Assembly: GCA_964017045.1 (NCBI GenBank)
Contig: OZ024808.1
Span: 29,234,495-29,298,494 of the forward strand
Reading direction: 5' to 3'
DNA: 64,000 nucleotides
Source: Omphiscola glabra
Lineage: Eukaryota > Mollusca > Gastropoda > Lymnaeidae
Position numbers and translations under genes: made by a program
Part shown: one piece after another, positions 4,139 to 61,818 of the stretch
How the letters are laid out: every line of letters starts with the position of its first letter
Numbering within the stretch: the stretch's first letter is position 1
The notes under the pieces: generated by a model
Told to the model about the DNA's origin: nothing
Database searches by the model: none
Seen by the model: only the letters and a program-made list of their open reading frames with translations

Positions 4139-4171
4139 CTTCATCACAGTAGTAGCACGGTGTAGAAGTCT
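4139..4171 (-). CDS. Gene 1 linker microexon 2 with Cys pair (33 nt)
   Basis: 33 nt, phase 1-1, acceptor AAACTCAG and donor GTATGT. It encodes TSTPCYYCDE. The gene 2 counterpart (33255-33302) encodes TSPSCEDCDK, with the two cysteines, the preceding Thr-Ser-Pro and the final acidic-basic residues in register. It is likely a Cys-containing stalk segment. It lies about 150 bp from the edge of a 39-bp minisatellite. Confidence 0.6.
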
Positions 4172-5178
4172 CTGAGTTTTCATAGAAATGGTTTATTAAT
4201 GCCAACAAATGAAATTATCATTTTATATATAAAGCCACCTAACTTTATATTTTATTCATCATATCTCTGGATAACTTTCGTACAGTTAACCATCACCCCA
4301 GTTTTACCAACAACACGGATTACGGTTACATTCGATGTAAGACAGTGGTCACCAGCTACTTCGGTGAAGAAACTTTAAATTGATTGTTAAATATAATACA
4401 CTATATAATTATTTTCCTCTTATAAATACATTTCTTTAACTTAAAATCAATAAGTAGACCATTATTTCATTCAATATTAAAAATTTAAAAACACCTTTTG
4501 AAAAAACACCTTTTGAAAAAACACTTTTGAAAGGCCTGAAACCTCTGTGGGCGTATTCATTACGCAGAAATATGTTAACTATAATAAATATTGGCCTATA
4601 ACTTTATTGTATAATAAATATTTATGATACTCTCTTAATGTCCTCACCTTTTGCCCCGTGGAACATCGTTGTGTTAGCTTCCTCAACACCTTGGTAGCAA
4701 TGCATGGAAAGGTAGCAATACATGGAAAGGTAGCAATACATGGAAAGGTAGCAACGTTTATAAACATGATGCTTATGTTATAATTAAATAAGGCAAACAA
4801 ATCTATTAAACGCTTTACAGGCGAAAGAAATAAACAATATTTTCTCCAAACCAATAAAAATCAAGATTTCTTTAAACCCATAGTTTGATTATAAGACTGG
4901 GTTCATTTTAGCCAGTCTGTATTAAAATAAAATCCCCAGCCCCCACCCTTTAAAAAAAACCCTTTACTCTGTTTTACTCAATAAATCTTTCTTGTGTGTG
5001 TTGGCAAATGTGTATGGACGGTTAGAAAGCACGATTTTTGGGTTGTCTTCTACATCTTTCGTATGGAATGTTTATTTTATTTTAGATTTCTTTTCGTGTT
5101 CTCATCCATAGAAATCCTCGTTCAGATTGATTAAGTAGTCTTTAAAAACATTGCTATGTAGTACAAAGTGGTAATAAC
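4172..5178. other. Gene 1 intron, mostly unremarkable, with an 18-bp repeat at 4689-4755
   Basis: Contains about 3.5 copies of GGTAGCAATACATGGAAA and short homopolymer runs. No coding exon recognised. Confidence 0.5.
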
Positions 5179-5344
5179 CAGGGGCCGGCCCTAACAATGG
5201 CGGGGCCCTATGCGAAACGGATTGCGCGGGTCCCAGTCTAGGTAGGGATAATGATAATAAGTGAAAATTAAAGTTTTGTATTAGAAAATAAAGTGCGGGG
5301 CCCACTGCGGCCGCATAGGTAGCAGTGGCCTAAGGCCGGCCCTG
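5179..5344. mobile_element. hAT-type MITE, 166 bp, intact with TSD
   Basis: Both ends carry inverted CAGGGGCCGGCC / GGCCGGCCCTG. It is flanked on both sides by the identical 8 bp GTAATAAC (5171-5178 and 5345-5352). An 8-bp target duplication and CAGG-type ends are the hallmark of hAT DNA transposons. It has no coding capacity. The interior has GGGGCCC motifs near both ends. A second, degenerate copy is at 9907-10082. Confidence 0.85.
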
Positions 5345-5654
5345 GTAATAACTACAATATTTTGTATTCATCGTGCAGGGTGTAGGCTGTGGGTGGGATG
5401 GAAGTGAAACAAAAATGTCACAAGATTGAAAAGAGAACGGTAAATACAGCAGCCATGTTCACTTAACAAAATAAACAGCTTTAGTTCACATCCACAAAGA
5501 ACAAAAAAATTTGGAAAAAATGATTTGTAACCACAATAAGCTGGGGCTTACTATGTGACTGCCAAGCTAGGATCGGTGGCACCGATCATTCCAGTGGTGT
5601 CATTAAGATAATACACCATCGTCTCATACGATTGGATGCCACTGACATAAACAT

Positions 5655-5657
<3 letters not shown>

Positions 5658-5702
<45 letters not shown>

Positions 5703-5768
5703 TAAACATAGAGGTATATAGACAGAAAGATATGTGATAGATGTATGGATGGATATATATATAGATAT

Positions 5769-5800
<32 letters not shown>

Positions 5801-5852
5801 ATAGATAAATAGATAGATTGATAGATTGATAGATAGATAGATAGATAGATAG
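5658..5852. repeat. (TA)n and (GATA)n microsatellites
   Basis: About 40 bp of TA dinucleotides, then mostly GATA units from 5740. Confidence 0.95.
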
Positions 5853-6269
5853 TATTGAGTAGCTATTGACAATTCATCAAATTTGCTTGCGATGACGATC
5901 TTGGATTGGCAGACTTGAACATTTCTGAACGTGGTTGTAAATCAAAATAGCAAATTATTTCCACAATGTCTCACATTGTTTCGGTAAAACTAGTAATTAA
6001 GATTTTCTTGTTTTTAGTTTTTCTTTCACAATAAATCACATAACTTTAGACAGAAAATGACCCCCCTCCCCCTCCCCCCTCCCCCTTACTTAACTGGTTA
6101 AATGGGTATTGCATAATGTTTGGCTTAACTTTAAATTAAGCAACCCTTAAAAACAGCTTTTAGTACAAACCTTTTATAAAATTTAAATCGAGCGGGGAGA
6201 GGGGGGGTCAAATGTTGACAAAACATGCACTGACGCACTTAAGAATAATCTTAATTAGTGCCACCCCCC

Positions 6270-6660
6270 CCTTTTCACACACACACTTTAAGACTGGCAA
6301 ACGTACATTTTTTTCACGCCCCTGAACTAGATTAATATTTTAATTGACCCATCGGCTTTTTCAGAAAAGAGAAATAAAATATTATGCACCAAACGAACTT
6401 TGTAAAAGAGAATCTCATTTAGCGCAGTTATCGGGAATGTTCCTTCGTAGTTCCCATTGGAAAAAATATGATAATCTGATTTTTTTTGGAGCTGGGGCTG
6501 AAAATTTGAAATAATGTGTCGTCATTGGCAACGAATCTTAATGCCAAGTTTCAGCTCGATAGCTTTACGGGATGTGGGTCGTTTGACCGGCCGAAAACTT
6601 TGCCACCCAGCCAGCCACAAACAAAGGCAAAGTTAATAAAGCGTTTTTTTAAAAACAAAA
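6270..6660 (+). repeat. Dispersed repeat family R1, copy 1
   Basis: Shares a series of landmarks with 9640-10260, 13850-14200 and, inverted, 42880-43085. These are CAACTATTTCAGAAAA-like, ATTATGCACC, CATTTAGCGCAGTTATCGG, GGGGCTGAAAA, GTCATTGGCAACG, TTTCAGCTCGATAG, and an end with AAAGTTAATAAAG. No coding capacity was seen; the element class is unknown. Confidence 0.65.
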
Positions 6661-6817
6661 AAAAACGCTTTATTAACGTCGCTTTTAAAAAAAACAAAAA
6701 CCCAAAAAAACCAAGAAAAGTATATAATTTATACTTTTTTATATTTTTTATATTTTTTTAAAACAAAGTATACATTATAAATAAACAGGATTAATATCGT
6801 TTGGACAAGTTACGTAC

Positions 6818-6841
6818 TTGGTGGATGACTTGGCTCATAAC
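6818..6841 (-). CDS. Gene 1 linker microexon 1 (24 nt)
   Basis: 24 nt, phase 1-1, acceptor TCGAACAG and donor GTACGT. With the split codons it encodes G-YEPSHPP. The counterpart in gene 2 (36018-36041, G-YIQTFDP) has the same length, phase and acceptor ending and lies at a similar distance downstream of exon A. It is probably part of a stalk between the last domain and the membrane. The shortness limits confidence. Confidence 0.55.
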
Positions 6842-7675
6842 CTGTTCGATGAGATGATACAATGTGGTTAGGACTTGAAATTAACAGACATGATCGAAAA
6901 TCTCTTCCTTAGTGTTGCAATATGTCTCCATTTACAGAGAAACACATTCACTTCTTACACCTTAAAGTAACCCCGTGTACCTAACGTCTTCAGAGTAACC
7001 CAGCTACAGCGTGATAATAGGGGTCCATAAATCGATAATAGGGGTCAATAAATCGATAATAGGGTTATGTAAAAATCGAATCGCGTCAACAGTGGCGTCA
7101 CATTAAAACGGGGGTCGTGTGAATGGCTTTGGGATATTAAAATGTAGGATGGTGGTTTATTTTGTTAAAACAAACGGATGTTTGAACATCTTAAGTTTGG
7201 TGATGTACGAAGGGTTAAATTTGAACAAGTTTTTGTGAGGAACATTTGTTATTGTGTGATCCGAGACTTACATTTAGACACTCTTTTGTTTACTGTAACA
7301 GACTGATAATTGATGATTATTTGCAGCGGAGTGAAAGGCACTATTTCGTGTCGGTGTAGTGATGCATAGATATAAATATAGAAAAGGAGGAACTATAACA
7401 GTATAGGAAGAAATGTTACAGTCATGTAGTTACATACAATTTTCATGTTTGAATGAATTTTTAAAAATGTCGGTAGTTATGCATGCCAGGACTGCGTTGT
7501 ATTCGAATTCGATTTATATCGGGTTTCTACTGTATTACTAACGCTCGATCCTGCTGGGTGCTGTCCTAGGCTAGGGTACAGCGCTATATTAAACCACCTT
7601 AATAATAACAATAATATTTCTTGATAAAATTACACCTTCTGATTGTAAGAATATTAAAAAATGTTAAACCGTTAC
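6842..7675. other. Gene 1 intron between exon A and linker 1
   Basis: Only a short triplication around GATAATAGGGGTC (7014-7062) stands out. Confidence 0.4.
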
Positions 7676-7951
7676 CGGTAAAGGAGCAGTTGTAGGAGTT
7701 CGTTCTGTTACACGAATCCACGTATTTAAAGACGTAGGTGACGTTCGAGTTGCCCATGAACAGCTCTCCAGGCAGACAGTGCTGTGTTGTGTTCGTCCAG
7801 ACGTTATCTTTCATCAAGGACAGCACGGCATGCTTCAGGCCGTTTCTGCAAAACTGAATGACATGCATCTTGCCGATGGCAAGCTTTGCCCCGCAGACAG
7901 GCCGAGAAACTAGGTTAACATCTTCAACCGATAAGCTTATGGGATTCTTAA
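7676..7951 (-). CDS. Gene 1 exon A, membrane-proximal Cys-rich Ig-like domain
   Basis: 276 nt, phase 1-1, acceptor TGTCAACAG and donor GTAACG. It encodes about 92 residues: NPISLSVEDVNLVSRPVC, IQFCRNGLKHAV, an NTT sequon with QHC, NVTYVFKYVDSC and SYNCSFTG. The gene 2 copy (36712-36990) shares KPIRLSVDHIDLL, VNFC, LKDAV, NTT, YTFKYIDLC and YTCTFRG. At least four potential N-glycosylation sites point to an extracellular domain. The layout is similar to exon B, so A and B are probably ancient duplicates of one domain. Confidence 0.8.
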
Positions 7952-8645
7952 CTGTTGACATTCAAATATTAAGTATTTAGATTATTGAAAACAAAACTCG
8001 GACAAGATTCTGGAATGAAATAAATTGAGAAAGACATTGACGTCACGTACGAATTCAATCCTGGTTCACTGATTTTTTCTTTAGGATGTGGTCACTCAGC
8101 AATCGGCTTAAAAACCAAACACAAATCTTTGTCTTGAAGGCCAAGTTTCTGTACCACAGATCCCTTTCTGGTATCCCTGCTTGGTTTTCACACCATCACC
8201 TGGCTGCCCATAATAGTGCTTTAATGGGATGTTAGAGGGATGGCATGTTGCAAGCATGGCGAGGACAACGCCAGTGTTGGGTGGGAACATTGTCTAAATG
8301 TTAGACAAGCTGGACAATTACTGTTGGAGATGGCATTTAACTTGGAGATTCTCAGAAATATTGTGCTCCTCTGGAAAAATGTGCTGTTACCTTTCTGTTG
8401 AGGAGGTGGCCTTTTTAATGAGGTGGCCCTTTTGAGGAGGGATACTTTTTGAGAATGTGGCCTTTTTGCGCACTGATTTTTAAAAAAATGCGCAGAAGAC
8501 ACTACTTTGAAAGATTCTGAACTCTTCCTTTATCCTTTGACCTCTGACTTTTACAGCCGACGTCTGCCTTTGAATGGGTGATGGCATGGGTCGAGTAGAT
8601 ATATGTAGAAAAAGCAAATCATTGATGTAAGTCTGAACTTTTGCC

Positions 8646-10703: not shown

Positions 10704-11069
10704 AATTGCGTGTAATTCTGTTCAACCATCTCGATTCGAATTTCATTTAAGCGATTAATCTGTCTGATTCCATTTCTACAAGTTTAGCTTTGTGGGTATC
10801 ATTAATCTTTATTACATAGTAAAATTGTAATTATATCCATTCTACAAATTTGTTTAGAATTATCCACAGCTATTTTTAAACAGAGAATCAATCATCGAGC
10901 CTTATTTTATAGGTTTAATTTAATTTATTTTGAAATAGACTTGCATCACTTGTGTTTAAAAGAAATATAAATATATGATGTATTAATTGAACCATAAAAA
11001 GTTTGGGAAAGACATGAAGCTAAGATGAAGGACCAAGTTAGCGATACGACATGCACAATGAATACTTAC

Positions 11070-11363
11070 TATATATCATACAATTAAATTCTGCAGCTAA
11101 ATGACAGTCAGAATAATGATCCGTGTAATTGAGCTGGATCCTCAACAGTGTATCCTCCTTGACGGTCAGTCTTCTGGTGATGCACTTGGCATGAGCCGTC
11201 TCTGAACGATCAAAGGTGTCAAGACTCATGGACACGGCAGGACTGACCAGTCCCGACACACAAAATGTGAAGTCCTTCCTACCTAGGTTCGGGATGTGCT
11301 GAAATAAGCAGTTGGGCAGTACGTTCTCACCGCCGTTGATCTGGAAGGTTGCTGTTTTGGCAC
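11070..11363 (-). CDS. Gene 1 exon B, Cys-rich Ig-like domain
   Basis: 294 nt, symmetric phase 1-1, acceptor GGTCCAG and strong donor GTAAGT. It encodes about 97 residues: FQINGGENVLPNC near the start, FTFC at about residue 36, a conserved PAVSMSLD, then KCITRRLTVKED, LNYTDHYSDC (an N-glycosylation sequon) and FNCMIY at the end. The copy at 39559-39849 aligns along its whole length (FKINGEL, FRLC, PSVSMSFD, NCITRTLAIKEN, LNYSDNYENC, YTCNIY). The symmetric phase and the closing Y/F-x-C suggest an Ig-like fold; this is inference. Confidence 0.8.
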
Positions 11364-11461
11364 CTGGACCGAAAATGAAATTAGGCTTAGGTAAAAAAAA
11401 AACAACCCGACATGTTCATATTAAACAAAAAAATTATTCTTGGAGAAAATCAGTTTATGAA

Positions 11462-13295: not shown

Positions 13296-13535
13296 CATCT
13301 TACCATAAATGACAGCTGATTGGAACTTACCATAAATGACAGGTGATTGGAACTTACCATAAATGACAGGTGATTGGAACTTACCATAAATGACAGGTGA
13401 TTGGAACTTACCATGACAGGTGATTGGAACTTACCATAAATGACAGGTGATTGGAACTTACCATAAATGACAGGTGATTGGAACTTACCATAAATGACAG
13501 GTGATTGGAACTTACCATAAATGACAGGTGATTGG
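13296..13535 (-). repeat. 27-bp minisatellite of splice donors, 9 units
   Basis: On the minus strand each unit ends CATTTATG|GTAAG, identical to the exon C donor of gene 1. Intron-start positions would be 13515, 13488, 13461, 13434, 13411, 13384, 13357, 13330 and 13303. Spacing is 27 except for one 23-bp unit between 13434 and 13411. The first four donors keep the reading frame and would add 9 residues (KFQSPVIYG) per step; those beyond shift it. Confidence 0.9.
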
Positions 13536-13732
13536 AATTCTTGGTAGACGTATCGCGGAGTCTGGTCCTGATGACCGAAATGCCAGACAGCTCGAAAAAT
13601 GACCCCGCTGTACTTTGTGATGGCCAGAACATCGAAGACGTGACATTTGACATTCGGCTTGTTAGCGGTGCAGTAGCAAATGTAATGTTGAACAGCCGCA
13701 CACAGACTTGACCTACAGACTGAACAATTAAC
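13516..13732 (-). CDS. Gene 1 exon C, second half of N-terminal Cys-rich domain
   Basis: 217 nt, phase 0 to phase 1. The acceptor is a good polypyrimidine tract ending TTGCAG, and the donor is GTAAGT. It encodes CSVC, then YICYCTANKPNVKCHVFDV, then FRAVWHF, and ends SPVIYG. The gene 2 copy (42597-42798) has CNIC, YVCYC, P, LKCHIYSV and FRVRWNF at the same places. Another frame is also open across the exon, but only this one matches the paralogue and the expected phase. The last 19 exon bases plus the donor are the unit of a 27-bp tandem array (13296-13535), so nine donors lie in a row. Confidence 0.8.
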
Positions 13733-13849
13733 CTGCAACATAGCGAAGAAGCAAGATGATTTCATACTTAATTGAACAACCCGTCAAAGCAAACTTGTTC
13801 GTATAAACCCTTTAGATGCTTTTTATAATATGTTGTTTTATGTGAATAT

Positions 13850-15238: not shown

Positions 15239-15239
15239 T

Positions 15240-17525: not shown

Positions 17526-17738
17526 ATAAGGGCTTCTTATCAAAAAGTTTTAAAGCTTTTCATTAACTTAGCATCGTGTTATTTCCCTTGCAATCAACAG
17601 TGTTATGGAAGCGTTCAATCTTCAATCATATCGAAAAGAAACAAATGAATGCCAGTGTTAACTTGAGAAGGGTTTATATACGTTTCGCCGGTAAAAATGT
17701 TACTTAAACTACGTTTAAAATGTCTAGTGACATCTCAC

Positions 17739-17932
17739 CACTTGATCCCAATTCGAATCTCGATTTTTCTTCAACTGCATACCGAAGCAAAAGTCCCAGG
17801 TCTCCTGTTGGAAGGAATGGTGACAGCACACTGACAGAGTCAGCTTGTCCTCATTTTCTATCAGTCCATTCTTACAGTACTTTGATTTTGACAATAATTT
17901 GACCTCAATACGTTCCCCGTCTCCAAACACAC
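17739..17932 (-). CDS. Gene 1 exon D, first half of N-terminal Cys-rich domain
   Basis: 194 nt, phase 1 at the 5' end and phase 0 at the 3' end, with donor GTGAGA. It encodes about 64 residues with KYCKNGLIENED, then C-C, then WDFCF. The same spacing is seen in the gene 2 copy at 44709-44899 (KYCQVGLVAGED, later EFCM). The acceptor (ACAACAG) is the first unit of a 47-bp minisatellite that repeats the acceptor and the first exon bases about ten more times upstream. The domain is completed by exon C, so the pair D plus C forms one phase 1-1 unit. No named family is recognised. Confidence 0.75.
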
Positions 17933-19649: not shown

Positions 19650-19719
19650 CTTGAAATAAGAATAAAGTGCACCATATTTGACACAGTGCATATTTCATTG
19701 TTGAATCGGTCATCATCAT
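19650..19719 (-). CDS. Gene 1 exon 1, start codon and signal peptide
   Basis: Starts at ATG (19719) with two further in-frame ATGs, and encodes 23 residues with a hydrophobic C-terminal half (IWCTLFLFQ). It ends in phase 1 at a GTAACT donor. The last coding base joins GT of exon D to make Gly. The paralogous exon at 47136-47205 has the same length, same phase and the same ending (FQ/LQ then G or D). About 25 nt directly upstream are also conserved between the two genes, which is why this exon is preferred over the Ser/Leu-rich reading frame at 19460-19568. Confidence 0.65.
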
Positions 19720-25487: not shown

Positions 25488-25683
25488 CAGTGATTCTCAA
25501 CCTTCCTAATGCAGCGACCCAATAATAGAGTACCTCATACTGCGGCGACCCCCAACCACAAAATTGTTTTCGTTGCTACTTCATAACTGTTAGTATATCT
25601 GTTTTCTGATGGTCTTAGGCGACCCCTGGGAAAAGGGCATTCGACCCCCAAAGGGGTCGCGACCCACAGGTTGAGAACTGCTG
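25488..25683. mobile_element. SPIN-like hAT non-autonomous element, 196 bp, with TSD
   Basis: Left end CAGTGATTCTCAACCTTCC, right end GGTTGAGAACTGCTG, flanked by identical 8-bp TGTTATTT (25480-25487 and 25684-25691). Internal phrases AATGCAGCGACCC, GTTGCTACTTCATAACTG, GATGGTCTTAGGCGACCCC and AAAGGGGTCGCGACCCAC agree with what I know of the SPIN family of hAT transposons. It has no coding capacity. Intact ends and a perfect duplication suggest a fairly recent insertion. It lies in a gene 2 intron. Confidence 0.85.
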
Positions 25684-25764
25684 TGTTATTTGATTATTAC
25701 AACACATCAGCTCTGCAAAGCTGGAAGGAAAGAAGTTTTGACTCGAATATGTTATGTGGTTATA

Positions 25765-26480
25765 ACGCTAATCATATCTGTCACATTTGTCGCTCTGCAT
25801 ACACCGCTATCCGTCAGATCAGCTCCATCCGTCACGGTTAGTACAACAAAAACAGTAGTCTATGATGCTCTTGTTCTCTCTCGTCTTGACTATTGCAAAT
25901 TTCGTCTGTCAGGTTCACCGAAACACTTCTTAGAAAAACTACAAAAGGTTCAAAAATCAGCTGCTAGACTAGTTCTAAAGGCAAAAAAACCGTGATCACG
26001 TCACACCACTACTTCATTTACTTCATCGGCTCCCTTTTCAAGCACGGATTGACTACAAACTCTCTGTTCTCTGCCACAATTTTTTCTCGAGTCCTGTCTT
26101 TCCTATCGAACCGAACTTATCTCTGTCTATTCACCCCTTCCATAGCTTCGCTCCTCCGCAGACGCGCGTATTCTTTCTGTCCACGAGACAAAAACATACG
26201 GTGAAAGATCTTTCTCTGACTGTGCCCCCCAAACAATGGAATTCTCTTCCACTACACATCCGCAATATACCGACCATCACAGCCTTCAAAACTGCCCTTA
26301 AATCACATCTCTTTAAACTCTACTATCCTTACTGATTCCCCACTCTGACCGATAAATGATGCTGCTATTCATCTAACTGTATCCTGGTATATTTCCAGTA
26401 TTGCCATTGGATCAAATATATTAGAACGAATTGGGCCACTATTTCCCATATAAAACAAAATAAAGCTCAAGTACAGGCTA
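25765..26480 (+). pseudogene. CR1-like LINE reverse transcriptase, 3' fragment
   Basis: Broken frames encode AYTPLSVRSAPSVTVSTTKT, LVLSRLDYCKFRLSG, FLEKLQKVQKSAARLVLKA, then LHRLPFQARIDYKLSVLC and the end WNSLPLHIRNIPTITAFK with TALKSHLF. The same protein is encoded on the minus strand at 34490-35437. It starts 80 bp after the SPIN-like element. Confidence 0.8.
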
Positions 26481-26894: not shown

Positions 26895-26927
26895 AACGGG
26901 TCGGTAAAGTGGACTTGATGACAGGAC
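26895..26927 (-). CDS. Gene 2 tail microexon 2 (33 nt)
   Basis: 33 nt, phase 1-1, acceptor CTGTTTAG and donor GTAAGT. It encodes PVIKSTLPTR. No copy was seen in the gene 3 part of the window, where the equivalent would lie above 61818. A second acceptor-like site at about 27013 would open a 26-nt or longer piece that does not keep the phase. Confidence 0.45.
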
Positions 26928-28815: not shown

Positions 28816-29816
28816 GACAGGAAAAGGCCAGGTGTTGTATTGTCATTATAGCAATTACCATATTTGTCCTACATCCAATCCTAGAGCAGACTCATGGGTG
28901 AAAATTATTATTATTAATTTTTTAAATTGTTGTTCGGCCTTCGCATGCAAATATGACCAAGACTATATTCAAGCGGGAGCACGCAGGTGGCTTGCCAGTC
29001 CAGTTTGTGCCTGGAAAGCTTTCACGCACGTTGTTTTAGGGTTTGAGTCGCTTCTTCTTTTCCTTGAGCTTATTGGGGAATGAGCGGTGCGCTAATTCGC
29101 TGAGGATTGTACTTCGACAATAAGTCTCCCACACCAATTTGCACAGTCCATGGATTTGAGTGAAGCTTGTAGACAGTTGTTGATGAGGTTTATTTTTTCA
29201 GCCAACAAGCTGAACGTCTCCAACTAATCGTTTAGGATGTATACAGTCTGAAATTCAAACAACATGCCCTGCCAACCTGGCCTGTCCCTTATGTAGGAGC
29301 GTGTGGATGCTGATAAAATCAGCCCGTTGTAGACATCTGTAACAGGGATTCAGTCCTGCCATCCTATGTAAGAAGTTTACTTGGGCGGTGTAAGTGGAGT
29401 TGGTTAAGCCGTCTACAGTGTATGCTATACACTGTTCACATCTGGCTTGGAAATATGATAGACGTTAATACGATTGCAACATATTTTTGCAGCCTAATTG
29501 CAATACTGATACCCCTTCGCTCCCAAAAAAACTCTTTAAGGGTCTTCAAAATGCAACTTTTGTTTTGGAAATCTGAATATTGATCTCATCATCTATTGTT
29601 ACTGACTGGAGAGGGTGCTGCCCAAATATGTAAATTGTTCCACTGCTTGAATATTCTATCCCTTCAATGATATGCTACGTTCTTTGTACGCCTTTCCTGG
29701 TTTTAGGCTGATGCAAGATCTCTGTTTTTAATTGATGACGAGGAAGTAGTGGTCGTTTAGCTAAAGATATGATATTCTCGTTACGCCAATTGCAGGAGAA
29801 GTGTCGTGAATAGCAT

Positions 29817-30760
29817 ATGCCTCTTTACATTCCGTTCATAGATCTGAAGAAGGCTTTCGACTTGGTAAGCCATTGGCCTGTTCAATGTCTTGCTTACAAT
29901 CGGTTGTCCCCCCCCCACAAACTGCTCACAATCATTACACCATTTCACGAAAAAATGCACAGCACAGTATCCTTCAATGGCTCGGTCTCTGAGCCATTCA
30001 CAGTCAGCAGCGGGGTAAAACAAGGTTGTGTACTGGCATCAACGCTCTTCTCCATTTTCTTCTCAATGCCTCTTCAGTTTGCCTTCAGGGACTGTGAAGA
30101 CGTAGTGTACATCCATACCAGATCTGATGGTTCGCTGTTCAATATCGCTCGCCTTTCAGAAAAAGTTAAGGCTAAAATGTGCTACTTCTTGAACTGCTGT
30201 TTGCTGACGATGTCGCCTTTGCCTTAACATTACCCATAGAAGAAGGTCCTCAGCAGTTAGTTAATCGTCTCTCTCATGCATTTTGAGACCATTAGTCTAC
30301 AGAAACAAATGTCATTATGCAAGAAGCGATGTGCCCTCAAAATGTGACTATTGAGGTCCATAATCTGTCGCTAGTTGATAAGTTCAAATACCTTATAATA
30401 TCCAAAATCTCTAGGTCGCATTCCAAAAGATCTGCTATGTTGAGAGATTGCAGAAAAGGCAAGACTTATTGTACCGGTCGCACCTGCGATTTGAGAACGT
30501 TTGCCAAAGGAACACGAGGGAAGCCAACATAGAAATCAACGAAGTGGACATCATCGCAGAGCCCCGTTCAAGCTGGCGAACAGCAATGTGTGAAGGTGTC
30601 AAATAGGCAGAAGAAGTGTGAAACAAACTCACTGCTACAAAGGAGAGCGCATCACGGTAGGCCAAATTTACCCGGGAGTCATTGTTCTAAAGCAAAAAGT
30701 TCAGCCGCGACTTTAAGTCCAGGATCAGCCTCGTAACCCTATGGGTGAGTTGTCCATAGC
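29817..30760 (+). pseudogene. Non-LTR reverse transcriptase remnant
   Basis: Contains the RT motifs FIDLKKAFDLVSH (29838), VSSGVKQGCVLASTLFSIFF (30000-30065) and, after a +1 frame change, ELLFADDVAFA (30191-30223) with the catalytic DD pair. Further broken frames continue to about 30760. Stops and shifts show it is dead. Jockey/I-type LINE is likely. Confidence 0.75.
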
Positions 30761-32103: not shown

Positions 32104-32190
32104 GTAAAAAACAAATGGTCGATCCGATAACGATGAGTAACGTGATCATCCAAATGAATGGGGTCCATTTAGAATACATATCTTGAATGT
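32104..32190 (-). CDS. Gene 2 transmembrane exon
   Basis: 87 nt, phase 1-1, acceptor ACACAG and donor GTAAGT. It encodes IQDMYSK followed by a continuous hydrophobic run, WTPFIWMITLLIVIGST, closing with ICFL. That is about 21 apolar residues, the length of one membrane pass. It lies between the Cys-rich ectodomain exons and the polar tail microexons, giving a type I topology with the signal exon. Three 85-bp units with a possible 12-nt microexon start directly downstream. Confidence 0.65.
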
Positions 32191-32388: not shown

Positions 32389-32974
32389 CTTAGATCAAGA
32401 GCATATTTTTTTTTTTTGATTCCCCAAATTAGTTACCTATTAGCCGCAACTGGGTACGCCTCTATGTTAACTAATTACATCCAGTATGTTAACTTAGTAC
32501 ACCCTCTATACACTAATATTTAAAAAAAATAAAATAAAATAATTTTATGAAGACATGAATTTATAAAATTGATACTTATCACTATCACAATATTAACACA
32601 GTAACACATACTATTGTTACAATAGTAATACAGCAATACATACCATTGTCACAATAGTAACAAGGGGTGGTTATCTCTGAATATAATTCGAAAAAAAAAT
32701 GTTGAAAAAAATTAGACTATAAATTTGATGTGATGAATCATAACAATATTAAGTAAAATCTGTTTGGTGTCCACAATGTGTGGTGTCAAATATGTTTGTT
32801 GTCAAATGTGTGTGGCGTCAAATATGTTTGGTATCAAATAGATTTAGTTCATATATTTGTGTTTTCAAATATGTTTGATGTCAAATATTTTGGTATCAGA
32901 TATCTTTGTACCAAATATAAAAACGGTAATAATGGGGGAGACTGCAATCAGGTTAGCACAATAAGAAATTAGTA

Positions 32975-33250: not shown

Positions 33251-33254
33251 ACAC

Positions 33255-33302
33255 CTTTGTCACAATCTTCACAGCTTGGACTTGTGTTTTTCCGTAGAAT
33301 AT
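33255..33302 (-). CDS. Gene 2 linker microexon 2 with Cys pair (48 nt)
   Basis: 48 nt, phase 1-1, acceptor CTTGTTTTCCAG and donor GTGTGT. It encodes ILRKNTSPSCEDCDK with one sequon (NTS). The C-terminal part matches gene 1 linker 2. A Penelope-like 3' tail ends only about 5-15 bp beyond the donor (to about 33250), so the insertion stopped just short of the splice site. Confidence 0.6.
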
Positions 33303-34489: not shown

Positions 34490-35850
34490 TTATTAGTAGT
34501 AGTTTTATTTAGCGCGGTACCCCGCTTAGGGCTGGGCTCACCACGATGTACGTACAATTTAACAAACATAATCATGAACTTAAAAATGAGCATACATTAA
34601 TTAAAAAAACCAAAATAAATGTGTGTTCGCTCCAACAATTCCATAACTATTTACGTGGCAAGGCATGGACGGCACCCAGCAGCATCGTTTATCGCTCAGA
34701 GGGGGAATCAGTCAGGATAGTAGAAATAAAGAGACGTGTTTTGAGTGCAGTTTTGAAGGATGTGATGGTGGGTATATTGCGGATGTGTAGCGGAGGAGAA
34801 TTCCATTTGGGGAACAGAAAGAGAAAGATCTTTCACCGTATTTTTTTGTGCGAGTCTTTGGGACATAAAAAATACGCGCGTCTGCGTAGGAGCGAAGCTG
34901 TCGAAGGGGTGAATAGGCAGAGAAATGTTCGGTTAGATAGGAAGGGCAGGAATTCGAGAAAAACGTTGTGGCACAGAACAGGGAGTTTGTAGTCAATCAG
35001 TGCTTGTACAGGGAGCCAATGAAGTGAATAAAGTAGTGGTGTGATGTGATCTCTGCCTTTAAAACTAGCCTAGCTGCTGAGTTTTGAACCTTTTGTAATT
35101 TTTCTAAGAATTGTTTTGTTGAACACGACAGAAGGGAGTTGAAATAGTCAAGACAAGAGAGAACAAGAGCATAGACTAGGGTTTTTGTTGCACTAACTGT
35201 GAGGTAGTGGCGGAAGTAGCTGATCTGACGGATAGCGGTGTATGCAGAGCGATAAATGTGAGAGATATGATTATCAAAAGACAAATTGTTAGACAGAAAA
35301 TAACCAAGATTCCTAGTGGATGATGTAAAATGTATGTCTGAGTTACCTACTTGAAATGAGGTGGGGAGAGCTGAGTTGAAGGATGATTTGTGATCGTGAA
35401 TAAGAAGTGCTTCCGTTTTGTCATCGTTAAGTTTCAATTAGCTGAGTGTCATTCATGACATGACATTAACAATGCTCTCTCGCAAAGTCGAGACAGCGTA
35501 ATCGACAAGAGATGGATCGGTATGCTTGTATAGCAGCGTGTCATACGTCAATGACTGGCTCTCCACCGCATGCCTCACGAGGAAGAGGAGTAGTGGCCTG
35601 GTATACATTGTGAATAGAACCGGGACCAAAACGGACCCCTGTGGCACACCGTACACCAAGACAGCACTGCCGGAGAGACAGCTATCGATAGCGACCACCT
35701 ACTTTCTATTGGAGAGGTAGGACCTAAACCAAGCCAAAACTGAACCAGAATTTCCACATCAATTTTCAAGGGTTTTGTAAAGAGTTTCATGGTCAACAGT
35801 GTCAAAGACCGCAATGAGGTCTAAGAAGATCAGCTTGGGGAGCTGACCGT
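34490..35850 (-). pseudogene. CR1-like LINE remnant
   Basis: Minus-strand order: FLDLIAVFDTVDHETL (about 35800), YGVPQGSVLVPVLFTMYTRP (about 35620), KLNDDKTEALLI (about 35430), AYTAIRQISYFRHYL, FLEKLQKVQNSAARLVLKA (about 35080), and the end RNIPTITSFKTAL. The 3' end shows TACTACTAATAATT. The YADD region has decayed (LTYDTLLYKH), and stops and frameshifts are present. It is inserted in a gene 2 intron. Confidence 0.85.
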
Positions 35851-36017: not shown

Positions 36018-36041
36018 CTGGATCAAAGGTCTGTATGTAAC
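36018..36041 (-). CDS. Gene 2 linker microexon 1 (24 nt)
   Basis: 24 nt, phase 1-1, acceptor TTGAACAG and donor GTAAAT. It encodes G-YIQTFDP and matches the 24-nt exon of gene 1 at 6818-6841 in length, phase and first codons. Confidence 0.55.
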
Positions 36042-36495: not shown

Positions 36496-36711
36496 ATTTT
36501 TAGCTTCGAATCAGACGGATTATATAATCTGAGATTTCATTAATTAAAAATCAATTTCCGTAGTTTAAAATGTTAAATAGGTTGTGTCGTTGGAATGCAT
36601 TATTTTTATCTGAAAATGTCCAGGCAGTTTAAAATTTAGGAATTCTTCACTTAATGTCACTTTGGGGAGCACTGCTATAAAATCCCAGAATGCAACATTC
36701 GATATCCTCAC

Positions 36712-36990
36712 CACGAAAAGTACACGTGTACGCTCGGCTCCTGTCGCACAGATCGATATATTTGAAGGTGTAGATGACACTCTTGGTGTCGACGACCAGG
36801 CTGACCGACAGGCAGGCTTGCTTCGTCGTGTTGACCAGAACGTTGTTTATCATGACCAGCAACACCGCGTCCTTCAGTTGTTGCCTGCAGAAGTTAACCG
36901 TGCGCTCCTTGTGAATCGCCAGCCTTATGTCGCATACGGAATGAGCCAGCAGGTCGATATGGTCAACGGATAAACGGATTGGCTTCTCAA
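36712..36990 (-). CDS. Gene 2 exon A, membrane-proximal Cys-rich Ig-like domain
   Basis: 279 nt, phase 1-1, acceptor TTTTCGACAG and donor GTGAGG, about 93 residues. It has IRLSVDHIDLL, VCDIRLAI, VNFCRQQLKDAVLLV, NTTKQAC, YTFKYIDLC and YTCTFRG. Compared with gene 1 it keeps one of the potential glycosylation sites (NTT). The exon is unusually GC-rich and codon-like against its AT-rich surroundings, which supports it as real coding sequence. Confidence 0.8.
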
Positions 36991-37662
36991 CTGTCGAAAA
37001 TGTAATTGTAAAAAAAAAATTGGTTTTAGCTTGTGAAAAAAAAAATGTCACTAGATAGATTATATTTCGTCAAATATCTTTTAAAACCATTATATATGTT
37101 TGTATCTTTATACATTAAATATATATATATATATATATTAAATATGATTTTTAAAGCATAGATTCAGTTTGTAATTTTTGTCATGTTTACCGCTCTACGT
37201 ACACCTTTAATCGTATGAACATAACATTTTTATTTTTTTGTAAATGCGCTCTCTATAAAAAGTTTCTTAAGGTTTGGCGCAGCATCGGACCGGGTCTTAC
37301 AACGATAAGATATTTGTCAATATTTATAATCATCTCTTACGTATAATGTTTAAAAATAAATAAATTATGTTCTACTAAATGCACTCCTCGTGAAATTATG
37401 AATTGCATATTTCTGAAAATAGTTACTTAACTGGAAAATAATCTTGTGATATTTATATATTTAAAAAAATAAAAAATAAAGGTTTCCTATTCTGTTATTT
37501 ATTAATCAGAAAGATGAGTTGAGTGTTTAAATTACATTTTAAAGTGTTCAAATAACTTTTGAAAGTGTTCACATAATGTTTCTAAGCGTTTGAATAACAT
37601 TTTAAGTCCTCAAATAACATTGTTTAATGTTTAAATGATATTTCAAAAACGTTTTAAAGTGC

Positions 37663-39535: not shown

Positions 39536-39558
39536 TTCAAATTATAATGAATACTTAC

Positions 39559-39849
39559 CGTAGATATTACAGGTATATTCCCGAAAATAATTACAATTTT
39601 CGTAATTGTCGCTGTAATTGAGAACCATTTTGATGTGAGTGTTTTCTTTGATCGCGAGTGTTCGCGTGATACAATTGGATTGCTCAGTTTCCAAAGGCTT
39701 TGTGGCATCAAACGACATCGAGACCGAAGGAGCAAGGAACCCTTGAGTACATAGCCGAAACGTCTTTGTTCCCAGCTTGTAGTAGTGCTTTGAACAGTTC
39801 GTCAGTGGAATCAGTTCACCATTGATCTTAAAGGATTGCGATCTCGGGG
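39559..39849 (-). CDS. Gene 2 exon B, Cys-rich Ig-like domain
   Basis: 291 nt, phase 1-1, acceptor CTCGTAG and donor GTAAGT, about 96 residues. It carries FKINGELIPLTNC, FRLCTQGF, PSVSMSFD, NCITRTLAIKEN, VLNYSDNYENC and YTCNIYG. The match to gene 1 exon B is strong in the second half and weak between residues 20 and 35. Divergence in that loop would be a natural place to test for diversifying selection. Confidence 0.8.
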
Positions 39850-39899
39850 CTACGAGATTTAGCGAATGAAGGTGCATTTTATACTATACAGTCATTTTT

Positions 39900-42535: not shown

Positions 42536-42596
42536 TAATCGCAGTCCCATTTTGACCACGTGGAAGAATGCTTAACTGGTATTCAACGATACTTAC

Positions 42597-42798
42597 GAAA
42601 AATTCTCGTCGACTTGTAATCTGCGTAGTAAATCTCCGAGTCGAAGTTCCAACGTACTCTAAAAGTAACTTCACTGTACAGGACTCTGGCTACGACGGAG
42701 TAAATATGGCACTTGAGTCGAGGCGTAACAGAACTGCAGTAGCAGACGTAGGGTTGATTAAGTTGACAATCACTTCCTCTGCAGATGTTACAGTCTGG
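42597..42798 (-). CDS. Gene 2 exon C, second half of N-terminal Cys-rich domain
   Basis: 202 nt, phase 0 to phase 1, acceptor TTTATCTCACAG and donor GTAAGT. It encodes CNICRGSDC, YVCYCSS, LKCHIYSVVARV, VTFRVRWNF and a C-terminal YKSTRIF. It has the same cysteine pattern as gene 1 exon C, but the end differs: the SPVIYG tail that seeds the minisatellite in gene 1 is absent here. Confidence 0.8.
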
Positions 42799-42879
42799 CT
42801 GTGAGATAAAGAAAAATGGTGCAAGTCATTTTCCGTTAACCGTCTTAATAATTAAACTTTCTACTAAACGCAATCTTTA

Positions 42880-44605: not shown

Positions 44606-44708
44606 TCAGTTAAGCAGCAAAACAAAAATAATTTAAAAAATAAATTAATGTAACACAAAATAAAAAAAAAATTAAAATAAAATACATATAATTCACATGA
44701 TTGCTCAC

Positions 44709-44899
44709 AATAGAATGCCATATTTCCTGTGTAGCATTTGCATAATACAGCTCCATGCAAAATTCGCTTGGCTCATGGTAAGATGGATAATTGATGCACA
44801 TTTGAAGGATGAACTGGTCTTCCCCTGCCACCAGTCCCACTTGGCAGTATTTAGGCACATACTTTGGCGAAAATGTCACAGAATTATTTCCGATGACAT
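44709..44899 (-). CDS. Gene 2 exon D, first half of N-terminal Cys-rich domain
   Basis: 191 nt, phase 1 to phase 0, with donor GTGAGC at the position homologous to the gene 1 donor GTGAGA. It encodes KYCQVGLVAGEDQFILQMC, then SEFCMELYYANATQ (one sequon) and ends IWHSI. The acceptor side (a T-rich tract ending TTCACAAAG) could also be read as hydrophobic coding sequence, but the match to gene 1 begins right after this AG. The exon pairs with C to make one symmetric domain. Confidence 0.75.
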
Positions 44900-45539
44900 C
44901 TTTGTGAATCAAAGTAAGAAACATGAAAAATGAAAACAACACAGAAGAAATTTTGAATTAAGGATCAATCAGACGAAGCTTTTCAGTTTGTGAACCGACA
45001 AAATTTTAAATTTAATACATTAAGCACTGTTTACTTTACTCATGTATGTCCACTGAAAGATTGTTGTCAATTAAGTTGAAATTCTAATAGACGAAAATTT
45101 GACAAATGCATAAGGAAAAAATGATCACAAATTTTTTTTATTACCAACCTTATGAGACATTTGAATCAATTTAAAGTAATAAATTGTTAGACACTTTGTT
45201 TCATTTAGTTGGGGTTGTTATGAATTATAACTAAATTGACTGCTAAAATATTCTTAACTATTCCACAAAAACACTGTCACCACATACCCCCCATTCTGTC
45301 ACTCCATAACACTTTCTCTGTCACCACTTACCAATACGTCTGTCACCACCTAACACTACGGGACCTCACCAGTAAGGCTTGCGGGACCTCACCAGTAAGG
45401 CTTACGCCACCTTACCAGTAAAACCTACGGGAGCTGACCATTAAGGTGCACGAGACCTTACCAGTAAGGTGAACTGGACATCAAGTCGAAGTGCAAATAA
45501 ATAAGGTAAAAAATAAGAAGAAACAAAAAAACCAGGTCT

Positions 45540-46080: not shown

Positions 46081-46084
46081 ATTT

Positions 46085-47135: not shown

Positions 47136-47205
47136 CTTGCAAAGAAAATAACTTTGATAGCAAAATTCTCCACAGGACGTATCTGTATTTTGAATAGACC
47201 GCCAT
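47136..47205 (-). CDS. Gene 2 exon 1, start codon and signal peptide
   Basis: Starts at an ATG in a favourable context (AAGATGG, 47205) and encodes 23 residues with a central hydrophobic stretch (YVLWRILLSKLFSLQ). Donor GTAATT, phase 1. It aligns with the gene 1 exon, and the 5' flanking bases (AGTT-AAAGGTCA in both) are conserved. The hydrophobic core is interrupted by a Lys, so signal-peptide function should be predicted formally. It sits about 90 bp from the 53-bp minisatellite in intron 1. Confidence 0.6.
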
Positions 47206-52925: not shown

Positions 52926-52929
52926 GTAG

Positions 52930-53970: not shown

Positions 53971-53979
53971 AACAAATAA

Positions 53980-55520: not shown

Positions 55521-56224
55521 AGTTTGCGGTCTCCCCCCCCTCCCCCAATATTTACATTGGACTGAAGCAAGTTGTATATAAAAAAAAACAACCTACTAGT
55601 ACTAGTTAAATAAAATCATGGAATCATGGGTCCTTAAGAAGTGTTAACTGACCTCGCATGTCAGCCTCAAAATTTAAGTATTTTTCTAACTTAGATATTT
55701 TAAAGGATAGAAATAAGAGGTAAAGGGATTATCCCTAATTGACATGCAATAAATGGGACGGAACACAGCGCTACAGCTGATACCACGGAAACCCATGGCA
55801 ACGGAAACAGCCTCGTTTATTCAAGAGCTTGCAAACAATCATTAATATCTTTTGAGCAGCTTCATGTTTTAACCGTGTCACAGTCTGGGCCGAGCTCAAG
55901 TCTTGAACGCGTCCTTGGCGTAAAGGCTGAGAAGCGTCCTTGTTAAGTGGTTCTAGGATTTCTCGTGAGCTTATCCAACCACATTGGGTTCTGCAGAGCA
56001 AAACATGGATTCGTACACGAATCACGAAATTAAACAAAGTTATGGATAAATAACAAGCGATTTCAGAGATTAGGTGATTGGAAGAATTTAAAGCCATTTT
56101 AGTCGATGGTTGAGACTTTTGATTTAAAGTTTATTTTAGAAATTTTTACGTTGTTAATATTAATTAATTTATTTTAAATAGTAAAAATCACTACATGCAT
56201 TTTAAGCCAAATTTGCAAGAATAA
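55521..56224. other. Intergenic, one open frame without support
   Basis: A 108-codon minus-strand frame (55771-56097) has mixed composition but no family signature. An acceptor CTGCTCTGCAG-like site at about 56000 could be the last exon of gene 3, giving a very short coding end. Confidence 0.25.
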
Positions 56225-56530: not shown

Positions 56531-56689
56531 CACATGGTTATCTAGTTGATACTTATATCATTTTAACATAGTGCAATGATAAGTCAAGATTCTTAATTTA
56601 AAGCAAAACAATTCCACTCAAATAAGAGAATTGTTGGTGGAAATAAAATTAAATTGATACATTCCTTCTTCTTCCTATAATTATCAGTT

Positions 56690-57429: not shown

Positions 57430-57468
57430 TCTCGTCGTCAGAAAACATGGTAGATTCAGTGGTCATCT
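57430..57468 (-). CDS. Gene 3 tail microexon 5 (39 nt)
   Basis: 39 nt, phase 1-1, acceptor TGTACATAG and donor GTAAGT. It encodes MTTESTMFSDDE. Counterpart of 23883-23921. The next downstream region (56690-57050) is a 50-bp array whose units contain GTAAGTGTAAGT. Confidence 0.6.
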
Positions 57469-57709
57469 CTATGTACAGAATATATTAATTATGTCATTTC
57501 TATATATAGAATAGATTCAATTATGTCATTTCTATTTATAGAGTACATTCAATTATGTAATTGCAATATATACAAGAATGAGCTATGCTGACATAACGCT
57601 AAAAAAACAAAAATATTTTGATACGTTCGGACTCTTAAAGATAATCGTAAATATTTTTTATTATTTAACGAAAATCGAAAAGATTTACATGCGCAAAAAA
57701 ATATTATAT

Positions 57710-58565: not shown

Positions 58566-58569
58566 CCAA

Positions 58570-58930
58570 TGACATAGATAGATAAATAGATATATGCTAG
58601 ATAGATAGACAGACAGACAGAGAGGCAGAGAGACAGAGAGAGAGACAGACAGAATGACAGATAGACGGACAGAGAGACAGACAGAGAGACATACAGAGAG
58701 ACAGAAGGAGAGACAGAGAGACAGACAGAGACAGAGGACAAACAGAGAGACAGACAGAATGACAGAGAGACATACATAGAGACAGACAGAGAGACAGACA
58801 AACAGACGGAAAGACAAAGAGACAGACAGAGAGGCAGACAGAGAGGAAGACAAAGAGACAGACAGAGATACCGACAGACAGAGAGACAGACAGGACGACA
58901 GAGAGAGAGAGAGACAGACAGACAGATCAT
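58570..58930. repeat. (GACA/GAGA)n simple repeat
   Basis: AGACAGACAGAGAGACAGAC-type sequence. The minus strand is open as a Ser/Leu/Cys-rich frame without biological support. Confidence 0.95.
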
Positions 58931-58959
58931 CCTTGAATAGTTGCGAAAAAGTTATATTT

Positions 58960-59753
58960 ATTCGGTAAACAATATTTATTCATATATAAAAATTAATGTA
59001 GGTATGTGTGTCCCGTATGTGCTTCTATACAATTTCTCCAAAAGAGTTGACAATTTTGTGAATTGTTGTACACACGCCCGAACATTTTTCTGAATCATTA
59101 CACACATTTTACAATATTCCGTTTTGGGACCAGGGCCCTAAATTTCCCCCCCCCCCAACCCTTTTATGAGTTAAATATAATTTCCGTATGCGTTCCTATA
59201 CCATTCATCCGATTGCGATAAAACTTTGGTAAGTTGTTGTGCGCAGCAAAGGTTTCTGTTTAGATTATCCATTTTGAAAAATTCCTTTTGGGACCGGGAG
59301 CCATAAATAATTTTTTCCTTATATGAGCTGAACAAATATAATTTCAATCAATGCTCTTGCATGGGTGGATAGAAATCAATCAAATACAAGCGACATTTCA
59401 GTTTGTTTGTGACGTAAGTACAACCATTTTATAATTTTGCGTTTGGGGCCAGGGGCCTTATTTTAAAAATAATAAATATTTGAGCTATATAAATATAATT
59501 TAAATCAGAGCTACTGCATGGCTGGATCAATGGCTACAATTGGGTGGACTAAATTTTGAAAAATCCATGCTTCTCACGTGGACAGCTATATGTTGTCTGC
59601 TCACGCGTCGAAAAAACTTCTAATTTATTTGTGTACGCACTAGATGGAAAAAACAATAAATATTTTCTATTTAAAAATTACTTTAAAACTTAATTAAAAC
59701 ACAAACACTTTTTTCATTGAGGGGCATTGCAACGCATGCCGGGTTCTCGCTAG
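58960..59753 (+). mobile_element. Helitron-like non-autonomous element
   Basis: Contains CCGTATGCGTTCCTATACC, ATCCGATTGCGATAAAACTT, repeated GGGACC-GGG blocks, and the 3' end GCATGCCGGGTTCTCGCTAG followed by T. A CTAG terminus and this style of repetitive body are typical of animal Helitrons. The 5' end is not located and the 3' hairpin is weak. Confidence 0.5.
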
Positions 59754-60074
59754 TCTATATATATATAATATATTCAACTATTGCATTTCTTTATATAGAA
59801 TACATTCAATTATGTCATTTCTATATATATATAATACATTTAATTATGTCATGTCTATATATAGAATAGATTCAGTTATGTCATGTAACCGGGTAACAGA
59901 AACCCTTTCTTAGACCTACCAGGTTTCCAAAAACCTTTTCTTACGACTAACAGGTAGCAGAAACACTTTCTTAGAACAACCCGGTAACAGATATCATTTT
60001 TTTTAGAATTACCAGGTAACAGAAACATTTTCTTAGAGGAATGAGTTGGTAGACAGGGGCTTAGCGACAGTAGG

Positions 60075-60575
60075 AATGAATATTATTTGTGGATACATCA
60101 GAAATAAGAGTATTTGTGGATACATCAGAAATAAGACTATTTGTGAATACATCAGAAATAAGACTATTTGTGGATACATCAGAAATAAGACTATTTGTGG
60201 ATACATCAGAAATAAGACTATTTGTGGATACATCAGAAATAAGACTATTTGTGGATACATCAGAAATAAGACTATTTGTGGATACATCAGAAATAAGACT
60301 ATTTGTGGATACATCAGAAATAAGACTATTTGTGGATACATCAGAAATAAGACTATTTGTGGATACATCAGAAATAAGACTATTTGTGGATACATCAGAA
60401 ATAAGACTATTTGTGGATACATCAGAAATAAGACTATTTGTGGATACATCAGAAATAAGACTATTTGTGGATACATCAGAAATAAGACTATTTGTGGATA
60501 CATCAGAAATAAGACTATTTGTGGATACATCAGAAATAAGACTATTTGTGGATACATCAGAAATAAGAGTATGCG
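60075..60575. repeat. 27-bp minisatellite, about 18 nearly identical copies
   Basis: GATACATCAGAAATAAGACT plus ATTTGTG. It is the most uniform array in the window; all four long frames across it are repeat artefacts. Confidence 0.98.
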
Positions 60576-60889
60576 GAGTGGTAAAATAAAAATACATAAT
60601 AAAACAGAAAAAAAATTAAAGAATAATTCACAGTAAACGGAAGATTGTAACAAACAAGTGCTTCATAATTGTTACATCTCACAGTAAACGTAATATTGTA
60701 ACAAACATGGGTACATAATAGTAACATTTCACAGGAGATGAAACATATGTGTTCCATCAATTCCAATAAACCATTAGCCCCATCCCCACCTACACTTTTT
60801 CCTTACCGCAGTTAGCTTTTTCTATTTTATGGTCTATCCCTTATTCAATTAAAGTTTGTTATTATACATTTTCTTCTTCTATTTTTACA

Positions 60890-61030
60890 GGGCCCACGAT
60901 CAATGAATTGATCATTCTGGCTCCTGTGTTTCCTAATGGGTTCACGATGTAACTATGCATTGTTTTGAAAGGGATACTTCACTGCTTGCAAAGGCCACTC
61001 AGCAATGGTATTATGAACTGCTGGTTGGAT
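60890..61030 (+). repeat. Dispersed repeat R2, copy 2
   Basis: GGGCCCACGATCAATGAATT, GATCATTCTGGCTCC, GGGTTCACGATGTAACT and CTCAGCAATGGT match 47433-47580. It lies in a gene 3 intron. Confidence 0.65.
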
Positions 61031-61229
61031 ACATAAATGTATACACATTGTTAAAATCAATTAACTGAAGAAATCACACCCCCAACCCCCTTAATTTTCC
61101 CCGTATTGAAGCACTCGAGTATTTCCAAGTCGTTTATGAAAAAAAAAAAAAAAATAAATAAAATAAAATAAAAAAATTAAATTAAATTAAAAAAATAGTA
61201 AATCTGACATGTCCAATCAATACAATTAC

Positions 61230-61262
61230 CTGATGTGTCATAGTCATAGCCAGTTATTTGAG
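61230..61262 (-). CDS. Gene 3 tail microexon 4 (33 nt)
   Basis: 33 nt, phase 1-1, acceptor ATTTTCAAG and donor GTAATT. It encodes QITGYDYDTS. Counterpart of 24212-24238. The Y-D-Y-D motif could be a phosphorylation site, but it does not fit the usual ITIM or ITAM spacing. Confidence 0.55.
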
Positions 61263-61791
61263 CTTGAAAATAAAAGGTCAAAAATAATATCTATTATTTA
61301 ATGTTTAAAGAAATTATTCCATTAATTGGGAAACTTAATGGGGTATATTGGAATGTAGTGCGTCTACAGTTTTTGTGACAATGTGCTTTCATAAAACATG
61401 CAGGACTCTTTGTGACGACATTGGCAAGCATAAAACATGGCACAGTAAAGAGGGATATTATTACTTTAAAGCAAATTAAAAGTAATTAGTAAAACATCGC
61501 CTTAATCCCTACACGTTCTTTGCGCCGCTAAAATACTACATGAAAAGAGTAAATAATGTTACTCATGCATTCATGAAACATGCAGGGATCTTTTTGTGAC
61601 GACATGCATCCATGAAATCGACCATTTTGAAAGGAATACTTATATTAACTTGATTTTTATAGAATGGGAACTTTGATTGTCGGAAACAGTTAGATGGATT
61701 ATTTCAAAATTCATGTTTGTAATTAATTCATTTTGATGTATAATTATGAATGAAATAAGTTCAGAATTTAAACTGTATAAAAGCTACTTAC

Positions 61792-61818
61792 ATGTTTTCT
61801 CTGAATATTTGGCGTCAG
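61792..61818 (-). CDS. Gene 3 tail microexon 3 (27 nt)
   Basis: 27 nt, phase 1-1, acceptor TTTTTCAG and donor GTAAGT. It encodes DAKYSEKT. Counterpart of 24603-24632 in gene 2, one codon shorter. Confidence 0.55.

What the first reader, a model, noticed from the sequence alone, without database searches (positions are those of the whole stretch)
4139..61818. Head-to-tail array of paralogous, apparently undescribed transmembrane receptor genes
Seen directly: two full sets of exons in the same order (signal, D, C, B, A, linker 1, linker 2), with matching splice phases, cysteine patterns and local motifs, plus tail microexons of a third copy. Inference: a tandemly expanded family of type I membrane proteins with three Cys-rich Ig-like units. 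Polymorphic clusters of single-pass membrane proteins are known from snail resistance loci, so a recognition role is plausible, but there is no direct evidence here.
Basis: partly seen in the sequence, partly recalled or inferred. Interest (0 to 1): 0.88.

Follow-up and report, generated by a model that had tools for sequence, protein, structure and literature searches.

The report
Tandem array of undescribed surface receptors
Six neighbouring animal genes, probably from a snail, encode related single-pass cell-surface receptors of an unnamed family; they look like recognition receptors, but what they bind is unknown.

Summary
On the minus strand the window carries two paralogous genes (G1, G2) and the 3' end of a third (G3). 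The window's own assembly (C16) shows six head-to-tail copies over about 241 kb. Exons D, C, B, A, stalk microexons and one transmembrane exon come in the same order and phases in all six; a signal exon is solid in five and tentative in G2. With the exons chosen, G3-G6 join into frames of 459-460 aa ending in a stop. Added here: G1's transmembrane exon at 2023-2109.
Exon A is predicted to be an Ig domain and B is its homologue. The N-terminal D+C unit (nine invariant cysteines) has no demonstrated fold, so 'three Ig-like units' is two plus one unknown. Pfam, NCBIfam and PDB sequence searches find nothing convincing. At least 32 loci carry A/B-like exons; the nearest listed fibrinogen match is 0.63 Mb away, so these are not FREPs.
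Best reading: birth-and-death-evolving recognition receptors, in kind like the snail PTC1/PTC2 clusters. Membership there, expression, polymorphism and ligand were not testable.

The parts
19650..19719 (-). G1 signal-peptide exon (MMMTDSTMKYALCQIWCTLFLFQ, phase-1 donor)
   Evidence: related to MVDD.RW..LGMIWF exons upstream of D in G3-G6
17739..17932 (-). G1 exon D (first half of N-terminal Cys-rich domain)
   Evidence: paralogous to D of G2-G6; phases 1-0
13516..13732 (-). G1 exon C (second half of N-terminal domain); donor lies in a 27-bp tandem repeat
11070..11363 (-). G1 exon B (Ig-like domain)
7676..7951 (-). G1 exon A (Ig-like domain)
   Evidence: homologue of the modelled exon A of G2
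6818..6841 (-). G1 stalk microexon La (GYEPSHPP)
   Evidence: 24-nt counterparts in all six copies, similarity weak in G3-G6
4139..4171 (-). G1 stalk microexon Lc (ETSTPCYYCDE)
   Evidence: 33-nt homologues in all six copies
2023..2109 (-).
   Evidence: same length, phase and W-T-P start as G2's TM exon
47136..47205 (-). G2 signal-peptide exon, tentative
   Evidence: weak similarity to the G1 signal exon, score 27 vs control 23
44709..44899 (-). G2 exon D
42597..42798 (-). G2 exon C
39559..39849 (-). G2 exon B (Ig-like domain)
36712..36990 (-). G2 exon A (Ig-like domain)
36018..36041 (-). G2 stalk microexon La (GYIQTFDP)
33255..33302 (-). G2 stalk microexon Lb (DILRKNTSPSCEDCDK)
   Evidence: counterparts ..PNTTCF.CD[KN] in G4-G6, and PNTTCFDGEK (second Cys absent) in G3
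32644..32676 (-). G2 stalk microexon Lc (EITTPCYYCDN)
   Evidence: all six copies
32104..32190 (-). G2 transmembrane exon, 87 nt
26895..26927 (-). G2 cytoplasmic microexon Cyt2 (GPVIKSTLPTR)
   Evidence: position and similarity to GRVDQSEMPSR-type exons of G4-G6
61792..61818 (-). G3 (third copy) cytoplasmic microexon ADAKYSEKT
   Evidence: ADAKFSEKT in G4; not found in G5 or G6
61230..61262 (-). G3 cytoplasmic microexon AQITGYDYDTS
   Evidence: present in G4, G5, G6
55971..55990 (-). G3 terminal exon, coding part to stop (EPNVVG*); a stretch conserved with G4-G6 follows
   Evidence: acceptor conserved in G3-G6

Best explanation
A six-gene head-to-tail array of single-pass cell-surface receptors, part of a larger family with at least 32 loci in this genome. 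Shown by sequence: signal peptide (tentative in G2); N-terminal unit with nine conserved cysteines (exons D+C); two homologous Ig-like domains (B, A), each with five invariant cysteines; a stalk of microexons with a CxxC motif (TTPCY.CD or STPCYYCD) in all six copies; one membrane helix; and in the four complete copies a K/R-rich CFWKK stretch after the helix and a short cytoplasmic tail with a GYxYD tyrosine motif. Inferred: the stalk cysteines couple two chains into a dimer; the membrane-distal unit binds a non-self or cell-surface ligand; the tail relays the signal through tyrosines or an adaptor; tandem duplication followed by fast change of the distal unit (birth-and-death evolution) supplies variety. 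Most likely role: innate immune or allogeneic recognition, in kind like the snail PTC clusters.
Against: No transcript, protein, ligand, expression or population data. The omega difference between distal and proximal units is not significant in 5 of 6 pairs (one-sided bootstrap 0.04 to 0.27); dS is also higher distally in 5 of 6, the pairs are not independent, and the bootstrap interval of omega in A reaches 1 in 4 of 6, so neither positive selection distally nor constraint in A is firmly shown. Three of five AF2 models of A were poor (pLDDT 56, 56, 44). D and C exons were not detected at the five distant loci (10 kb each read). Cytoplasmic exons other than Cyt2 were not found in G2, and none in G1. 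No ITIM or ITAM was recognised by eye. The same anatomy would suit an adhesion, gamete or developmental receptor.
Confidence: 0.6

Rival explanations
1. The array is real but serves cell adhesion, neural wiring or reproductive recognition, not immunity. The Ig units bind partner receptors on other cells and the family expanded for cell-type or mate diversity.
For: The nearest folds of exon A are adhesion and immune receptors alike (MAdCAM-1, NCAM, PECAM-1, neuroplastin, SYG-2).
Against: Recent tandem duplication (G5/G6 96% identical over D-C-B-A), larger protein distances in the distal unit and 32 scattered loci with low similarity fit recognition under conflict better than conserved adhesion; not decisive.
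Confidence: 0.27
2. The genes are membrane relatives of the FREP/CREP (VIgL) family: the Ig units are FREP IgSF domains that lost the lectin part.
For: FREPs combine one or two divergent Ig domains with a fibrinogen domain in snails (PMC7588048, passages read); this genome has 74 listed fibrinogen-C matches, 45 of them on C14.
Against: The nearest listed fibrinogen-C match to any of 32 family loci is 0.63 Mb away (the 11 listed matches on the contigs concerned were all compared); the A exon is followed by stalk and TM exons instead. Sequence homology of the Ig units to FREP IgSF could not be tested.
Confidence: 0.08
3. Decaying or non-functional copies without a protein product.
For: No transcripts examined; Cyt3 not found in G5/G6, Lb not found in G1, most tail exons not found in G1 and G2.
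Against: 29 of 29 core exons searched for gave stop-free models with splice sites and phases kept (the G4 B start was corrected; G4's TM exon was found); four frames of 459-460 aa to a stop; omega point values in A 0.27-0.57, though the interval reaches 1 in 4 of 6 pairs.
Confidence: 0.04

Closest known systems
PTC2 (Polymorphic Transmembrane Cluster 2) TM1 genes, Biomphalaria glabrata
   Same: Cluster of single-pass membrane proteins of 166-530 codons, membrane helix away from the N-terminus, no recognised domain, many homologous to each other (PMC7494358 passages; PMC11426442 passages and section 17)
   Different: No PTC2 sequence was available here, so homology is untested; polymorphism and resistance association are unknown for this array
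GRC/PTC1 grctm genes, B. glabrata
   Same: Seven clustered single-pass proteins with a large, beta-rich extracellular part (PMC4361660, passages read)
   Different: Most have fibronectin III domains, not all are similar in sequence, and all have over 50 residues on both sides of the helix; here two Ig-like domains, CxxC stalk, one common architecture and a tail of about 45 residues in G3
Ig-only TM1 genes in Biomphalaria sudanica LG16 and LG5 clusters
   Same: Clusters of single-pass proteins with Ig as the only key domain shown (PMC10875847, Fig. 9 legend and passages read)
   Different: Those were annotated as Ig in that paper; the exons here are not recognised by Pfam
FREPs (fibrinogen-related proteins)
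   Same: Divergent Ig-like domains expanded in snails
   Different: FREPs are secreted with a C-terminal fibrinogen domain; no listed fibrinogen-C match lies within 0.6 Mb of these loci
Vertebrate leukocyte Ig receptors (LILR, Siglec; the CD28-type cysteine hinge is recalled)
   Same: Single-pass Ig receptors; the A exon fold matches LILR and Siglec-10 chains; clustering in vertebrates is recalled
   Different: No sequence similarity; no ITIM/ITAM seen by eye

Membership tests
Immunoglobulin superfamily (fold) | Ig beta-sandwich fold, exon A | tested here: met
Immunoglobulin superfamily (fold) | Ig fold, exon B | tested here: inconclusive
Immunoglobulin superfamily (fold) | Ig fold, exons D+C | tested here: inconclusive
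FREP / VIgL | C-terminal fibrinogen (or lectin) domain in the same gene | tested here: not met
   Nearest listed fibrinogen-C match to any of 32 loci is 0.63 Mb away; stalk and TM follow A. Lectin domains were not searched genome-wide
FREP / VIgL | IgSF1/IgSF2-type sequence | not testable with these tools
   the published profiles are not held
PTC1/PTC2-type polymorphic TM1 cluster | cluster of single-pass membrane genes with large extracellular part | tested here: met
   six copies, one TM exon each found
PTC1/PTC2-type polymorphic TM1 cluster | extreme allelic polymorphism | not testable with these tools
   one unnamed assembly only
PTC1/PTC2-type polymorphic TM1 cluster | sequence homology or synteny to GRC/PTC2 genes | not testable with these tools
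   no PTC sequences held; species of the window not named

The most novel reading that the evidence does not exclude
A large lineage-specific receptor system: at least 32 loci of CxxC-stalked Ig receptors with a fast-changing N-terminal unit of unknown fold, serving as the hidden common family behind snail resistance clusters such as PTC2, and giving germline-encoded recognition diversity by tandem birth-and-death.
Probability: 0.25. Interest if true: 0.82.

Novelty: new member of a known kind. Interest (0 to 1): 0.6.

Why it matters
Snail resistance to schistosomes maps to clusters of single-pass membrane genes, few of which contain recognised domains (PMC7494358, PMC11426442). A family with full exon anatomy, a predicted Ig fold, a diagnostic stalk motif and a first genome inventory makes a direct test possible: whether those clusters belong to one Ig receptor family, and whether its distal domain is under diversifying selection.

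Tried and rejected
FREP membership: rejected on gene anatomy. Genome-wide repeat: rejected. Search of about 5.8 billion proteins: none of 722 candidates reached E 0.1 and none of 1712 reached E 1. A control with the window's LINE fragment found 95 of 116 candidates, mostly from short environmental contigs and with bacterial names where any was given, so the database holds few animal genomes, if any, and the absence says little about other snails. Pfam and NCBIfam: only hits below the curated cut-offs for the receptor (105 scanned five of the six genes, G5 left out as near-identical to G6). PDB by sequence: no relative. Foldseek gave no E below 0.001 for A or B (RhoGDI at the top). Rfam at gathering threshold and tRNA scans of the window: none. 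Positive selection: not shown. Scans for signal exons gave no clear answer until the flanking copies were read. Distant members were not fully counted: further genome searches stayed unanswered.

Papers: passages found by terms in PMC7494358, PMC10875847, PMC12297450, PMC11426442, PMC7588048, PMC4361660, and section 17 of PMC11426442 in full; listings only for all others. That this family is not in print rests on searches alone, whose terms could miss an unnamed family.
Full report
CHECK OF THE OBSERVATION. The window is C16:29234495-29298494 of a 744.8-Mb assembly in 37 contigs. After masking tandem repeats, 1660 stop-to-stop ORFs compared with each other pair four minus-strand exons in order: A 36650-37069 with 7602-7961, B 39545-39877 with 11041-11415, C 42586-42825 with 13538-13783, D 44682-44957 with 17727-17927; E 2e-26 to 5e-7. 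Exact borders have AG and GT, and phases agree: D 1-0, C 0-1, the rest 1-1. The two proteins are 39% identical.

THE ARRAY. A genome search with exon A of G2 gave 19 matches, 6 of them in a row on the minus strand of C16; exon B gave 26, again 6 in the array. I fetched the next 200 kb. Together with the window, five of six genes show TM, A, B, C, D in order by tblastn; G4's TM exon and the linkers were found by a targeted scan. Each of the 29 core exons then searched for gave a stop-free model with splice sites in the shared phases (the G4 B start was corrected). Signal exons MVDD.RW...LGMIWF were found for G3-G6 and a relative for G1; G2's is tentative. Cytoplasmic microexons (GINKKCFWKK type in G3-G6; GRVDQSEMP type in G2-G6; ADAKYSEKT in G3 and G4; AQATGYEYDSS type in G3-G6) and a terminal exon with a conserved acceptor in G3-G6 complete the genes. 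In G2 only the second tail exon was found, in G1 none. Joined by these choices, G3, G4, G5 and G6 read 459, 460, 459 and 460 aa to a stop.

FAMILY. Hits of A and B merge, within 15 kb, into 32 loci: 18 on C18, 6 on C12, 6 on C16, 1 each on C7 and C15; a lower bound. Seven of the 18 C18 loci have both exons, all seven with B upstream of A on the same strand; the other 11 were hit by B alone. Of the 26 loci outside the array I read five, 10 kb each, chosen for their A hits. Two (C18, C12) also hold a B-like exon. Downstream of A, four of five have a T[TS]P?.?C..C microexon and three a TM-like exon; one C18 locus is filled with tandem repeats there and has neither. The motif, framed, occurs in 0 of 263 candidates upstream of A, 0 of 829 on the opposite strands, 0 of 2657 on the plus strand of the array, and 13 of 2345 (nested variants counted) on its minus strand. 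D and C could not be detected at the five loci. Of 74 listed fibrinogen-C matches 45 lie on C14; on the five contigs with family loci there are 11, and the nearest to a locus is 0.63 Mb away.

EVOLUTION. Protein identity of D-C-B-A: G5-G6 96%, G4-G5 and G4-G6 66%, G3 against G4-G6 58-61%, pairs with G1 or G2 33-41%. Over the six pairs among G3-G6, D+C has higher dN than A in every pair (bootstrap fraction of the contrary 0 to 0.004). Omega is 0.62-0.99 in D+C, 0.51-1.12 in B and 0.27-0.57 in A; the difference D+C against A is significant at 0.05 in one pair of six; dS is also higher in D+C in five of six; the interval for A reaches 1 in four of six. This shows faster protein change in D+C and suggests constraint in A; it does not show positive selection.

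MECHANISM. Shown: anatomy, and the topology expected from it. Inferred: dimerisation through stalk cysteines, ligand binding by the distal unit, signalling through tail tyrosines, recognition role. The nearest kind in print are snail clusters of single-pass membrane genes tied to schistosome resistance (PMC4361660, PMC7494358, PMC11426442) and Ig-only TM1 clusters in B. sudanica (PMC10875847). Like PTC2 genes, these are within 166-530 codons with no known domain, but I held no PTC sequence, so membership is open.

LIMITS. No transcripts, no second genome, species unnamed; gastropod origin is inferred. Genome searches were often unanswered, so the inventory is partial.

Noticed in passing
13303-13515: The 3' end of exon C of G1 and its splice donor sit in a 27-bp tandem repeat, giving nine consecutive GTAAG donors; use of the second to fourth instead of the first would keep the frame and add 9, 18 or 27 aa (FQSPVIYGK units), a possible source of length variants.
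   Followed up: partly
1-64000: Tandem repeats cover 30.6% of the window and 36.4% of the 264 kb of window plus flank, many distinct minisatellites between the exons.
   Followed up: partly
29814-30227: Reverse-transcriptase fragment on the plus strand (RVT_1 E 2.5e-7); a pair of LINE-like pieces lies inverted at 25675-26335 (+) and 34692-35437 (-).
   Followed up: partly
G000 C14 13.9-26.2 Mb: 44 of the 74 listed fibrinogen-C matches cluster here, many as split exons, perhaps a FREP-type cluster.
   Followed up: no
G000 C18 14.4-26.2 Mb: Eighteen of the 32 family loci are on C18, the main site of the family found so far.
   Followed up: partly
L033 219-524 (+): ORF upstream of the B-like exon with a C.C pattern that looks like exon C by eye but is not among the matches of the exon C profile.
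   Followed up: partly
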